Of a DNA stretch of 64,000 nucleotides, positions 41,427-45,886 are shown in pieces. Below the pieces are notes generated by a model. It ran no database searches and was not told the origin of the DNA. It was given only the letters and a program-made list of their open reading frames with translations. This DNA is from Dermatophilus congolensis (GTDB lineage Bacteria; Actinomycetota; Actinomycetes; Actinomycetales; Dermatophilaceae): contig NZ_LT906453.1 of the NCBI RefSeq assembly GCF_900187045.1, positions 2,356,001-2,420,000 on the forward strand, in the 5' to 3' direction. Position 1 is the stretch's first letter, and each line of letters opens with the position of its first letter. A program made the position numbers and the translations under genes.

Positions 41427-42353
41427 TCAGCGAGAAACCGGCAACGCCTCGTGCTCAATCCCCCAGTCCTTCACCGCCTGCGCCTCAGCAGCCCAATCCT
41501 GAGACCCAGGCACCTCCCCCACCTCCAAATGCGCCGCGCGATCTGGAACCACCGCGAACAAATAATGCGGAGTCTGCTGCTTACGAGCACGCGCATTCAT
41601 CAAAAACCGGAACGGAAGCAACACCGCCGCACGCACCACCCCACGGATCCCCGGCACAAAATCCTTCCCCAACCCAAACACGAACTCCCGCCCGTGATAA
41701 GGCACCACCCCCTGACTGATCAAACACAACTCGTGATCCAAAAAACGATTCCGGAACGGCCGCATCGCCAACTCGTGAATATCCCGATCAGCACGCAACA
41801 CCCCCACCCGCGCCGCAAACGTGCTGGTCGTTGACATCACGTTCACCCACAAGTCCTCCCCCACCTGCTCATCCGGCTGAGCCTTCCACCCACGCGGCAT
41901 CGCATACCTAGCCCGCGCAGCCGCATCCGTTGCCACCGGCGGGCGCTTACCCGTCAACGCAAACGACGACACCTTCGGCAACTCCTCTGCCGCTCGCGCC
42001 AACACAACAAACGCATCCTGCGTCAACAGGTAGTCATCCTCAATAAAAGCGATCACATCCCCATCGGACAGCGCCAACCGGTCCGGCAAATCCAATGCAA
42101 ACCGGTAACTGCCCAACAACCCCACCGGACCACCATCAGTGAACATCACCCGCCCATGGCGCTCCATCACCGCCAACCGCGGCTGAGGAATAGGCCCATC
42201 GTTAGCGAACACGACCTCAACATCCACACCCGCGTCCCGCGCGAACGCCGCAGCCCGCACAAACGAAGCAACCACCACATCCTTACTGAAATAGCTCGGA
42301 CGCTCCTTATCGTTCTCGCCGCCATATGACCGCAGAACCAGGCATAACCTCAT
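41427..42353 (-). CDS. GT-A fold glycosyltransferase, GnT-I-like
   Basis: A 308-residue putative transferase. The N-terminus RLCLVLRSYGG starts a Rossmann-like fold, and DGDVIAFIEDDYLLTQDAF carries an Glu-Asp-Asp motif where GT-A enzymes bind the metal-nucleotide sugar. FLDHELCLISQGVVPYHG may form the acceptor side. Substrate unknown. The ATG at 42353 has AAGGGAG upstream. It follows the FliD-like gene by 123 bases on the same strand, so surface-appendage glycosylation is a possible but unproven role. Confidence 0.6.
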   Translation of the reverse strand: MRLCLVLRSYGGENDKERPSYFSKDVVVASFVRAAAFARDAGVDVEVVFANDGPIPQPRLAVMERHGRVMFTDGGPVGLLGSYRFALDLPDRLALSDGDVIAFIEDDYLLTQDAFVVLARAAEELPKVSSFALTGKRPPVATDAAARARYAMPRGWKAQPDEQVGEDLWVNVMSTTSTFAARVGVLRADRDIHELAMRPFRNRFLDHELCLISQGVVPYHGREFVFGLGKDFVPGIRGVVRAAVLLPFRFLMNARARKQQTPHYLFAVVPDRAAHLEVGEVPGSQDWAAEAQAVKDWGIEHEALPVSR

Positions 42354-42476
42354 CGAAAGCTCCCTTACGCACACGCCCTCGTCCATCCGATAAGCGCCAG
42401 TCACCGGAAGGCTACGTCCTGTGCCTGCACTCAAGCTCGACACATACCCTCACCCAGGCCTGACTTCAGTCAGAAT

Positions 42477-45350
42477 TCAGTCAACAAGCCCCTGCAACCA
42501 CGCAGACTCATTCGTCAACCGATTCAGCAACCCAGTCAAAGCAACCGACAACCGGTTTTCCCCCGCCTCACGACCATCACGATCCCAATGCGCCGAGGCC
42601 GTAGCCGCCTGAGCTTGCCTAGCCAACGCTGTTTCTCCGGCCAACCTCACCGCAAACAGCCCAACTCGCCCATCCAACGACTCCCTACCAGCAGCAGCGA
42701 TCTCGGCAGCGGCGCCCCGCACCACAGCCCGAGTGCCAGCCGGGTCTTCCTCCAAAGCCTGCACAAACGCAGCCCTATCCAACGCGACACGTCGCCGCGC
42801 TACCCCCACCACATCACGGCCTTGAATATCTGCCTCATCGAGAGCGACCACGCCGCTAGTTGGTACAGAAACCCCAGGGATAGCAGCGAGGCCAGCTGAA
42901 ATTGCCTGAACAAGCTCACTGACTTTCGGGTTATCAGCGAAAGCAGACAGCGATTTGGCCGTCGGGTCGCTCGAGGTAGTACTATGCGCCGACGCTGCCT
43001 CTGCCTCAGGAACAGCAGAAGCACCTACTGCCCCAGCAGCTGCACCCGCCGCCTCTGGCTGTGCAGGAACCGCGCTGAAGAACCCTACCGGTGGATCTGC
43101 CCCATACGCCGCCGCTAGTTTTCCTGCTTGCCGGGCCTGCATCCGAACGGCATCAATAACGGATGCCTCCCCCATCGGCGCTAGCTCCTCCTGCGCAGGG
43201 ACCTGTCCAACAGCAGGCTGAGGCACCTCTATATCTGGCGTAATCGCCACACCCGCAGTGCCATACATCCCCGCCTGCACCACCCCATCAACCTTGCTGA
43301 CAAGATGCTCCATCGCATCAGCAGCGGCCTCCAGGTCAGGGGAAAGGAGCAGCGTGACACGTTCCCCTGCTGCAGCCCGACTCAAGCTCATGGTGAGCCC
43401 CGGCACCGGCCCCTGCACCGTTGAGGTGTTCGATACCGCGCTCCACGCAAGCCCCGGCGTGTTCGACATCACCAAGGTTTCTGTGCGCGGGGCAAACCAG
43501 TCGAGACCGCCCAGGGCCTCACTACCTGGACCAGCACCAGCTGACAACGAGACGCGCGGCATCCCCACCGCCGACTCAACCACCAAATGCACGTATCCGT
43601 CTGCGACGGTGCGAGCCGAGGTCTCCACCGGCAGTCCCGCAGCATCAGCTAGACCGTTCATCACCCCAGCCAGATTCTCAATAGTCACCGGTGGTGGCAC
43701 CGTTGCTGAAACCTGACCCAAATCCTGCGCACCGGTGGCATCACCTTGCCCACCAGGCATGGTCATACCAACCATCAACGGCTGCCCACCAGAAAGATCA
43801 AACGCTGCGGGCACGCCCATGCGACTAATCGCCACCTCCCCCCGCGCAACCTCAATAACGTTGAGCTCCAGTGATAGCGGCGTGGTCAAAATGTCGAGGT
43901 CAGGCCATGTTGAAGAAATCCCACCCTCGGCAACTGGACCAGTAGGCCCTGATGAGCCTTCCGGCACCGGTTCAGCAGGCCAGGGCGTGTTCACCCGCAC
44001 CAACGCCGGATCTGATGAGGCCACATGCACCGGAATGAACGGGGCAGTAGCCAACGAAGCCGCTGAAGCTGTCGCCGCTTGCACCTGGCTCTGCAAAGCT
44101 TGCAGATCACTCACCCCGGTCTGCGCCGCCTCAGCAATAAGCTGCGCTGGACCAGTCACCCCTGAAGCTGACGCCGTAGCCATAACCGCTGCATAGAACG
44201 ATGCTGGCGGCCCAGCGGTAATCGCTGTTACTGCCGTGGCGACATCATGCTGCAGGGCCATCTCTTGAGCGTTCTGCTTCACAGATGCCGCGACATGTTC
44301 AAGGAGGTCAGCTGCCGTCGGGATCGACGTGCTAGCTGATACGTCAAGGTCAGACAAATCCTGGGGCAGTGCCGGAATAGCTGTATCTCCCAGATACGCC
44401 TCAGCACGTGCAACCGTAGCGATCGCGGCAATCGTTCGCGTTACCTCCGGCAAGGTTTTCGAAACTGCTTCTAGGTGCCCCGCAACCGTCCCACCGATGT
44501 TGGCCTGCCGCCCTGAAGGCCAGACAATTTTCGGCACAGATTGGTTTGATTCTTCGACTGCATCAGGCTGATCCGAAGCGTCACCAGGAACAAGAGCCAG
44601 CGCAGAGCTTCTGTTACGTTCCACAACGCTGTGCCCATCTAGCTCCACATAAACAGTGCCATCTGGCTGAATTCGACCAATTGCCCCTGTTGTTCGCGTC
44701 AGCGTAGTCATCGCGTCAAGAGTCTCTTGGGTGGGGTCAACCCCTGGGCGTGCTGTGGCGTTGGCTGCGGCGATAGTGCGGGCTGCCAAATTCGCTAAAT
44801 CGATATCCGACACAGCGGCGTCAACTTCTAAAGCACGAGAAGCAGCCAATCCCGTTCGAATGGCATCAAGGCGTTCCATGAGCGCTGCACGTTCAGCCCG
44901 CTCAACCTGGTCGCTAAGGAGAGCACGCCGACGATTGGTGCTTTCCTCATCCCGGCTACGCGCCGCTACGGCGTCAGCATTCTCTGTTTCCTGCGCTGCC
45001 GCAGAGTTGCCTGTCTCATCGATTACCGAGGCAACGCCTTCATAGGTCGCCCGATTAACAGCAGCGCGAGCCTGCGCGGCACGGGCAGCAGCGGTACGTT
45101 CATCATCAGGGCCGCTACGTGTGGAGTCTGGGACACGATCGGCGCGATCAGCAGCGTGTCGGCGCTCGTCACGGCGCGCCGCAACTGAAGGCATCTTCTC
45201 GATTGCTTCAGCCACCGATGCTCCCTGCATATTGCGAACTCGGGCGCGAGCGAGGTCGATATCAGAAGCACTTGGCCCCTCGCCCATACGACGTGGGTAT
45301 CCACCGAGATAGGTGTCCGCTGAAGGCGGGAGGGCTGCTGAAGTCGTCAT
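42477..45350 (-). CDS. giant FliD-like (flagellar cap) protein with long N-terminal extension
   Basis: About 957 residues. Numbering from the ATG at 45350, residues 1-400 are Ala-rich, charged and helical/low-complexity without a recognised family; SDIDLA occurs twice (28 and 181). Residues 405-510 follow the FliD N-terminal pattern (LQALQSQVQAATASAASLAT, HVASSDPALVRVN, LELNVIEVA). Residues 545-605 look like the variable D2/D3 part (TIENLAGVMNGLADAAGLPV). Residues 624-706 match the conserved core (SAVSNTSTVQGPVPGLTMSL, DAMEHLVSKVDGVV). Residues 809-957 match the FliD C-terminus (DNPKVSELVQAI, RRVALDRAAFVQALEEDPA, LTGLLNRLTNESAWLQGLV). Typical FliD is about 450 residues. No other flagellar gene is near. 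Alternative starts: ATG 45359, TTG 45437. Confidence 0.72.
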   Translation of the reverse strand: MTTSAALPPSADTYLGGYPRRMGEGPSASDIDLARARVRNMQGASVAEAIEKMPSVAARRDERRHAADRADRVPDSTRSGPDDERTAAARAAQARAAVNRATYEGVASVIDETGNSAAAQETENADAVAARSRDEESTNRRRALLSDQVERAERAALMERLDAIRTGLAASRALEVDAAVSDIDLANLAARTIAAANATARPGVDPTQETLDAMTTLTRTTGAIGRIQPDGTVYVELDGHSVVERNRSSALALVPGDASDQPDAVEESNQSVPKIVWPSGRQANIGGTVAGHLEAVSKTLPEVTRTIAAIATVARAEAYLGDTAIPALPQDLSDLDVSASTSIPTAADLLEHVAASVKQNAQEMALQHDVATAVTAITAGPPASFYAAVMATASASGVTGPAQLIAEAAQTGVSDLQALQSQVQAATASAASLATAPFIPVHVASSDPALVRVNTPWPAEPVPEGSSGPTGPVAEGGISSTWPDLDILTTPLSLELNVIEVARGEVAISRMGVPAAFDLSGGQPLMVGMTMPGGQGDATGAQDLGQVSATVPPPVTIENLAGVMNGLADAAGLPVETSARTVADGYVHLVVESAVGMPRVSLSAGAGPGSEALGGLDWFAPRTETLVMSNTPGLAWSAVSNTSTVQGPVPGLTMSLSRAAAGERVTLLLSPDLEAAADAMEHLVSKVDGVVQAGMYGTAGVAITPDIEVPQPAVGQVPAQEELAPMGEASVIDAVRMQARQAGKLAAAYGADPPVGFFSAVPAQPEAAGAAAGAVGASAVPEAEAASAHSTTSSDPTAKSLSAFADNPKVSELVQAISAGLAAIPGVSVPTSGVVALDEADIQGRDVVGVARRRVALDRAAFVQALEEDPAGTRAVVRGAAAEIAAAGRESLDGRVGLFAVRLAGETALARQAQAATASAHWDRDGREAGENRLSVALTGLLNRLTNESAWLQGLVD

Positions 45351-45436
45351 CGCACTCATCCATGAGTTGTCGTGGCCGGGCTCAGATTCAGACGCGAAGC
45401 GACGATCTGTCCCCTCTACAGCTTCCTCATCGACCA

Positions 45437-45488
45437 AGGTAGGGCGTGCTGTAGCTGATCTGCCGATTAGCTACAGCACGCCCTACCT
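45437..45488 (-). terminator. perfect 20-bp hairpin upstream of the FliD-like gene
   Basis: AGGTAGGGCGTGCTGTAGCT (45437-45456) pairs perfectly with 45469-45488; the loop is 12 bases. It lies 38 bases past the stop of the small upstream gene. There is no T-run, but such stems terminate in high-GC bacteria. It implies that the FliD-like gene has its own promoter in the 86 bases that follow. Confidence 0.6.
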
Positions 45489-45526: not shown

Positions 45527-45886
45527 TCACTGCCCCAGCGGCAGCATGCTGCTCGGCAATCCATTGCGCAGCTCGCTCAATTGAGTGCATATCTGACTGG
45601 CTGCTTGACCACGCGCGTCTTCGTCAGCGTGCGCCGCGAAATGGTCGTAAATCACCGCGGTGATCACCTGCATCACTGCTGCCGGGGTAGCTGCGCAAGA
45701 CTCTTCTAGCGCTGGCACTGTGTCCCGGTGTGTTGGGTCGCTGGCAGCCACGCTCGTCGCCAGCTCCCACGCATCCCGGACACAGGCGAGCGCCTGATCG
45801 TAGGGCAAGGCTGCCCAGCGTGTGATCAGGCGCTCGAGTTCACCGCGCACGCACTCCGGAACGGGGTCGTGGGGTGGATGGTTCAT
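45527..45886 (-). CDS. hypothetical 119-residue protein coupled to the BI-1 gene
   Basis: An acidic, mostly helical, soluble protein with no recognised motif. Its ATG begins one base after the stop of the Bax-inhibitor-1 family gene, so the two form an operon. Segments such as LITRWAALPYDQALACVRDAWEL and AVMQVITAVIYDHFAAHADE suggest a helical bundle (key aromatic residues W, Y, W, Y, F). Size and helicity recall export chaperones like FliS, but I see no real signature. Confidence 0.65.
   Translation of the reverse strand: MNHPPHDPVPECVRGELERLITRWAALPYDQALACVRDAWELATSVAASDPTHRDTVPALEESCAATPAAVMQVITAVIYDHFAAHADEDARGQAASQICTQLSELRNGLPSSMLPLGQ

What the first reader, a model, noticed from the sequence alone, without database searches (positions are those of the whole stretch)
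42477..45350. Orphan giant FliD-like protein with a 400-residue N-terminal extension
The C-terminal 550 residues follow the flagellar cap FliD pattern from start to end (N-terminal helix and SSDP segment, the SNT...PGLTMSL core with the VDxVV helix, and the C-terminal L..LLNRLxxESAWLQ). The protein is twice the normal FliD length because of an Ala-rich charged extension. It is not in a flagellar cluster: its neighbours are a glycosyltransferase, a BI-1 family operon and a tRNA. Either flagellar genes are scattered in this organism, or the FliD fold has been recruited for another surface filament or an altered cap. A leading Ala-rich segment is unusual because FliD export signals normally lie at the N-terminus.
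Basis: partly seen in the sequence, partly recalled or inferred. Interest (0 to 1): 0.78.

Follow-up and report, generated by a model that had tools for sequence, protein, structure and literature searches.

The report
Fused FlgK–FliD flagellar protein
This gene encodes a protein in which two normally separate bacterial flagellum parts, the hook–filament junction protein FlgK and the filament cap FliD, are joined in one chain; related flagellated bacteria keep it at the same chromosomal spot beside their normal FlgK and FliD, so the flagella of this group probably have an undescribed part.

Summary
ORF 42480–45359(−) is a 960-residue protein. Residues 410–960 align colinearly with FliD (profile P 7e-37). 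The "Ala-rich extension" is not novel sequence: residues 85–326 are a diverged FlgK D1/D2 module (P 1e-21; Pfam FlgK_D1 above cut-off in 8 of 11 homologues). The protein is therefore a FlgK–FliD chimera that lacks FlgK's N-terminal D0 and FliD's N-terminal D0 motif but keeps FliD's C-terminal helix. The genome also has a complete flagellar cluster with ordinary FlgK, FlgL and FliD, so this is an additional protein. It occurs at one syntenic site in 14 of 188 family genomes, all 14 flagellated (14/28 versus 0/160, P 8e-14), and arose once. It is under purifying selection and nearly cysteine-free like FlgK and FliD. In 10 of 12 genomes a flagellar sigma-28-type promoter precedes it (combined P 3e-13), although the window species has only a weak one. 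No homologue turned up in the other families sampled, nor any description in the searchable papers. Most likely it is a late, exported accessory hook-associated protein acting at the junction or cap; a cytoplasmic decoy is the main rival. Identity is well supported; mechanism is inferred.

The parts
42477..45359 (-). Chimeric FlgK-FliD gene, 960 aa plus stop (TTG at 45437 would add 26 aa, not supported)
   Evidence: ORF list; ATG and conserved MS.MT start in homologues; dN/dS 0.147 against the 94%-identical relative
45150..45359 (-). Residues 1-70: low-complexity, probably disordered N-terminus; candidate type III export signal (inference)
   Evidence: No family match; not alignable to FlgK or FliD; no hydrophobic signal or membrane segment
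44382..45107 (-). Residues 85-326: FlgK D1/D2-like module (aligns to FlgK 78-341)
   Evidence: hhalign P 1e-21 to 42 FlgK sequences; the same segment against FliD gives nothing; Pfam FlgK_D1 in 9 of 11 members, 8 above cut-off; AlphaFold2 module, top six PDB fold matches all FlgK
44133..44381 (-). Residues 327-409: variable, mainly helical linker between the two modules
   Evidence: No significant match on its own except its FliD-side edge
42480..44132 (-). Residues 410-960: FliD-like module (aligns to FliD 35-445)
   Evidence: hhalign P 7e-37 to 43 FliD sequences; alone it does not match FlgK; hmmsearch of the family profile hits FliD structures (5xlj E 5e-8)
42480..42671 (-). Residues 897-960: C-terminal D1/D0 helix of the FliD module, among the best-conserved parts of the family
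   Evidence: Long C-terminal helix, pLDDT above 75 only in the last ~30 residues; conserved A940, L945, L948, W954, L955
42495..42539 (-). L941, L944, L948, W954, L955: same spacing as Salmonella FliD L443, M446, L450, Y456, L457, which bind chaperone FliT (L443 also needed for pentamers)
   Evidence: Spacing comparison with PMC5493677; alignment
45425..45453 (-). Weak sigma-28-like promoter site (TACA-N15-GTCGATGAGG); much stronger CTCA-N16-GCCGAT sites in most other genera
   Evidence: here p 0.09; 10 of 12 genomes p at most 0.013
45438..45487 (-). Perfect 19-bp inverted repeat between the BI-1/119-aa unit and the chimera gene, terminator-like; separates the two units
   Evidence: Sequence shown directly; also present in the near relative G001
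41427..42443 (-). Glycosyltransferase-like ORF 33 bp downstream, possibly co-transcribed; only in this genus

Best explanation
The gene encodes an additional, late-stage flagellar hook-associated protein made by fusing a FlgK module, which has lost FlgK's N-terminal axial D0 helix, to an almost complete FliD module. Shown here: dual homology, single origin, fixed location, exclusive occurrence in flagellated relatives, purifying selection, cysteine depletion, and in most genera a flagellar sigma-28-type promoter. Inferred: it is made when filament genes are on, is carried by a FliT-type chaperone through its conserved C-terminal helix, and is exported by the flagellar type III system. At the hook tip or growing filament end it associates with canonical FliD (cap) and/or FlgK/FlgL (junction) as an accessory subunit. 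It cannot replace FlgK in the axial tube because it lacks the D0 part that lines the channel. It probably stabilises or primes the step at which the FliD cap sits on the FlgK-FlgL junction before flagellin is added.
For: Dual homology with clean controls (structures). Length 960, close to own FlgK 495 + FliD 448. Complete canonical cluster retained. Occurrence in 14/28 flagellated and 0/160 other family genomes (Fisher 8e-14). Same slot between BI-1 and MsrA/GreA, and no homologue in that slot of 14 relatives. One clade in both FliD and FlgK trees, and the bearers' canonical proteins form one clade too. Promoter CTCA-N16-GCCGAT in 10/12, combined P 3e-13, against 0/80 neighbouring genes at 14 bits or more. 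FliA/WhiG-like sigma in the genome. dN/dS 0.147, like FlgK 0.15. One Cys in 10,025 residues versus 0/20,098 in FlgK and 1/21,032 in FliD. FliT/pentamer contact pattern kept. Cap assembles on the junction in known flagella (PMC12221982).
Against: No experiment shows export or location. In the window species the promoter match is weak (p 0.07-0.09). Three of 14 genomes (G004, G015, G129) have frameshifted copies, from sequencing error or loss, so it may be dispensable. The FliD module could not be modelled with confidence (pLDDT 37). The N-terminal D0 motifs of both parents are missing, which argues against ordinary axial assembly. It evolves much faster than canonical FlgK and FliD. Half of the flagellated relatives lack it.
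Confidence: 0.5

Rival explanations
1. A cytoplasmic decoy or regulator: by presenting FlgK-like and FliD-like surfaces and the FliD C-terminal helix it titrates HAP chaperones or the export gate and times the switch to filament export, without being built into the flagellum.
For: N-terminal D0 regions of both parents are absent while the FliT-binding helix is among the best-conserved parts. FliT release from FliD is a known regulatory signal in Salmonella (PMC5493677).
Against: Near-total lack of cysteine, as in exported axial proteins, and long surface-domain-like segments that a decoy would not need. A decoy would not need the FlgK D1/D2 module.
Confidence: 0.22
2. A non-essential relic: an old flgK-fliD duplication that still has a promoter but is drifting to loss.
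For: Frameshifts in G004, G015 and G129; fast evolution; absent from half of the flagellated relatives.
Against: dN/dS 0.147 between two relatives; intact ORFs of 822-1052 aa in eight other genomes of five genera; conserved promoter and slot.
Confidence: 0.13
3. The FliD fold has been recruited for a separate, non-flagellar surface filament.
For: The gene lies outside the flagellar cluster; a glycosyltransferase-like gene follows it in this genus.
Against: Present only in genomes with flagellar export genes; flagellar-type promoter; no secretion or filament genes beside it, and the neighbours are housekeeping genes.
Confidence: 0.05
4. It is simply FliD with an unusual Ala-rich extension.
For: The FliD module is colinear and nearly complete.
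Against: The extension is FlgK-like by Pfam, profile comparison and fold; the canonical fliD is elsewhere and intact.
Confidence: 0.02

Closest known systems
FliD (HAP2), flagellar filament cap
   Same: Residues 410-960 colinear with FliD 35-445, including the SSDP segment, the SNT...PGLTMSL core, the LDR.F..AL..DP segment and the C-terminal helix with its chaperone/pentamer contacts
   Different: No GLGSGVDT-type N-terminal D0 motif, Pfam FliD models below cut-off, fused to a FlgK module, outside the flagellar cluster, and present beside a canonical FliD
FlgK (HAP1), hook-filament junction
   Same: Residues 85-326 align to FlgK D1/D2 (78-341); Pfam FlgK_D1 above cut-off in 8 of 11 members; six best fold matches are FlgK
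   Different: No N-terminal D0 (Flg_bb_rod) and no recognisable C-terminal D0; a FliD module follows instead; a canonical FlgK is present in the same genome
FlgL and flagellin FliC (other axial proteins)
   Same: General helical, cysteine-poor make-up
   Different: No profile similarity (scores at background)

Membership tests
FliD filament cap | Profile similarity along the FliD length | tested here: met
   hhalign residues 410-960 to FliD 35-445, P 7e-37; controls at or below 22 bits against 297
FliD filament cap | Pfam FliD_N and FliD_C above curated cut-off | tested here: not met
   No member reaches it; best FliD_C E 0.006, FliD_N E 0.04
FliD filament cap | N-terminal D0 helix with SG(L)xSG(x)DT motif | tested here: not met
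   Confident alignment starts at FliD residue 35; motif absent from all members
FliD filament cap | C-terminal D0 helix with FliT/pentamer contact residues | tested here: met
   L941, L944, L948, W954, L955 match the spacing of the Salmonella contacts
FliD filament cap | Forms the cap pentamer at the filament tip | not testable with these tools
   Structure model of this module failed (pLDDT 37)
FlgK junction protein | FlgK D1/D2 helical module | tested here: met
   Pfam FlgK_D1 in 9 of 11 members, 8 above cut-off (the window member itself below, 21 against 28.6 bits); hhalign P 1e-21; fold matches
FlgK junction protein | N-terminal D0/rod helix (Flg_bb_rod) and C-terminal D0 (Flg_bbr_C) | tested here: not met
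   No Pfam match in any member; confident alignment covers FlgK 78-341 only
FlgK junction protein | Forms the 11-subunit ring between hook and filament | not testable with these tools
   Needs biochemistry or cryo-EM
Late (sigma-28) flagellar regulon | sigma-28-type promoter as in front of fliC | tested here: met
   10 of 12 homologues p at most 0.013, combined P 3e-13; the window genus itself inconclusive, p 0.07-0.09
Flagellar exported protein | Export through the flagellar type III system | not testable with these tools
   Indirect only: no Sec-type signal or membrane segment, cysteine depletion

The most novel reading that the evidence does not exclude
Flagellated Dermatophilaceae build a flagellum with an undescribed axial component: one polypeptide carrying both junction (FlgK) and cap (FliD) modules that links or primes the step from completed hook to growing filament, in addition to the canonical FlgK, FlgL and FliD.
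Probability: 0.3. Interest if true: 0.75.

Novelty: new variant of a known kind. Interest (0 to 1): 0.62.

Why it matters
FlgK and FliD are normally separate proteins with fixed positions at opposite sides of the filament's start. A conserved natural fusion of the two, kept beside the normal pair and controlled like flagellin in most genera, suggests that flagellum assembly in this actinobacterial family has an extra step or part. It also gives a ready-made construct for asking how the cap engages the junction before flagellin is added, a step only recently resolved structurally (PMC12221982). It shows that such extra flagellar parts can be encoded far from the flagellar cluster and missed by standard profiles: for the window protein neither Pfam FliD nor FlgK reaches its cut-off.

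Tried and rejected
Single-protein Pfam, NCBIfam and PDB searches: only a sub-threshold FlgK_D1 hit, no FliD. First scan of public genomes with the protein alone found nothing, and the 11-member alignment had no stretch conserved enough to scan with; a Mobilicoccus-led alignment found three known members. A distant chance match was excluded by shuffled and reversed profiles, by FlgL and FliC templates, and by testing each module against the wrong parent. The glycosyltransferase as an obligate partner was rejected: it is seen only in this genus. Scattered flagellar genes: rejected, compact cluster found. Chimera elsewhere in the order or class: none in samples of 396 and 395 genomes; only separate FlgK and FliD genes appear (each genome scored on its two best candidates). 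Structure of the FliD module: failed for lack of permitted aligned sequences. My first guess that the family was Cellulomonadaceae was wrong; record titles show Mobilicoccus. Literature searches for a FlgK-FliD fusion found none.

Full report
WHAT IS THERE. The ORF on the minus strand runs from ATG 45359 to the stop at 42477 (960 aa; an upstream TTG would add 26 residues). Homologues in other genera begin at the same conserved Met (MS.MT...), so the ATG is preferred. Alone, the protein gives Pfam only a sub-threshold hit to FlgK_D1 (E 3e-4), none to FliD, and nothing in NCBIfam or PDB. Upstream on the same strand are a 119-aa ORF and BI-1, a perfect 19-bp inverted repeat lies between them and this gene, and a glycosyltransferase-like ORF follows 33 bp downstream.

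TWO PARENTS. Relatives were collected by six-frame genome searches and read in their context. A three-sequence profile of the family, compared with seven canonical FlgK and seven canonical FliD proteins, gave FlgK score 92 for residues 81-315 and FliD score 139 for residues 411-959. Shuffled, reversed, FlgL and FliC controls all scored about 21 or less. With 11 family members against 42 FlgK and 43 FliD proteins the scores rose to 181 (P 1e-21; confident part residues 85-326 to FlgK 78-341) and 297 (P 7e-37; residues 410-960 to FliD 35-445). The N module does not match FliD and the C module does not match FlgK. Pfam FlgK_D1 is found in 9 of 11 members, 8 above the curated cut-off, best E 2e-23. 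The family profile hits solved FlgK (E 1e-12) and FliD (E 5e-8) structures over the corresponding parts. An AlphaFold2 model of the N module (pLDDT 73) has FlgK as its six best PDB fold matches, top one probability 1.0 although E 0.02. The model of the C module failed (pLDDT 37) and is not used. The length, 960, is close to the organism's own FlgK (495) plus FliD (448).

WHAT IS MISSING AND KEPT. FlgK's N-terminal D0 (residues 1-77) and FliD's N-terminal D0 motif are absent, and no member matches Flg_bb_rod or Flg_bbr_C. The C-terminal FliD helix is among the best-conserved parts. L941, L944, L948, W954 and L955 reproduce the spacing of Salmonella FliD L443, M446, L450, Y456 and L457, which bind FliT; L443 is also needed for pentamers (PMC5493677). 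This residue match assumes that W954-L955 corresponds to Y456-L457.

IT IS AN EXTRA PROTEIN. The genome (2.63 Mb, one contig) has a complete flagellar cluster at about 2.54-2.58 Mb with FlhA, flagellin, canonical FliD (476-aa ORF, 448 aa from its likely start), FlgK and FlgL; the window gene lies near 2.40 Mb.

DISTRIBUTION. Of 188 genomes of the family, 14 carry the chimera (handles G000, G001, G002, G004, G015, G063, G071, G072, G073, G087, G111, G129, G130, G131; six genera), and all 14 have FlhA. In all, 28 genomes are flagellated; none of the 160 others has the chimera (Fisher P 8e-14; relatedness makes this P optimistic). In every bearer whose flanks were held it sits on the BI-1 to MsrA/GreA/MshB stretch. 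That stretch in 14 relatives without it holds no homologue. Samples of 396 genomes of the order and 395 of the class show only separate FlgK and FliD genes outside the family. In trees of both modules the chimeras form one group (SH-aLRT 100 and 98). The canonical FliD and FlgK of the bearers also form one group (91 and 99), so a single origin in one flagellar lineage is the simplest reading.

FUNCTIONAL MARKS. dN/dS between the two closest members is 0.147, against 0.15 for FlgK and 0.10 for FliD. The 11 members hold one cysteine in 10,025 residues, like FlgK (0/20,098) and FliD (1/21,032); low cysteine is typical of exported axial proteins (own knowledge). A promoter matrix from 29 flagellin promoters (CTCA-N16-GCCGATAA) finds a site upstream of the chimera in 10 of 12 genomes (each p at most 0.013; combined P 3e-13), while none of 80 neighbouring-gene upstream regions reaches 14 bits and one exceeds 12. 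In the window genus the site is weak (p 0.07-0.09). A FliA/WhiG-like sigma gene is present.

MECHANISM. Shown: dual homology, single origin, linkage to flagella, selection, cysteine depletion, promoter in most genera. Inferred: late expression, chaperoned export through the flagellum, and association with the FliD cap and/or the FlgK-FlgL junction as an accessory subunit that is not part of the channel wall because it lacks N-terminal D0. In known flagella the FliD cap assembles on the FlgK-FlgL junction before flagellin is added (PMC12221982), the natural place for a protein with both modules. A cytoplasmic decoy that titrates HAP chaperones is the main rival.

CAUTIONS. Copies in G004, G015 and G129 are frameshifted; sequencing error and gene decay cannot be separated here. 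Taxonomy: three homologous loci are titled Mobilicoccus, which places the family as Dermatophilaceae; that the window genome is Dermatophilus is my inference from family, genome size and GC. No paper describing such a fusion was found in the searchable library, which lacks most subscription journals.

Noticed in passing
L034, L101-L108 (fliD regions of G033, G169, G170, G175, G178, G187-G190): Flagellated relatives of three genera that lack the chimera have a canonical FliD of 621-638 aa, whereas chimera-bearing genomes have 444-456 aa; this may be phylogeny or a trade-off.
   Followed up: partly
G004 (L029+L030), G015 (L031), G129 (L073): Three homologues are split by frameshifts (two breaks in G129) although promoter and start are kept.
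   Followed up: partly
window 45527-45886: A fast-evolving 119-aa protein (dN/dS 0.31) next to BI-1, recognisable next to BI-1 in most relatives examined; no Pfam family.
   Followed up: partly
window 41427-42443: Glycosyltransferase-like ORF (Pfam Glycos_transf_2 only E 0.25) directly after the chimera, in this genus only; could act on flagellar proteins.
   Followed up: no
L028 5417-6256 and 7812-8651: G004 carries two flagellin genes with similar upstream regions.
   Followed up: no
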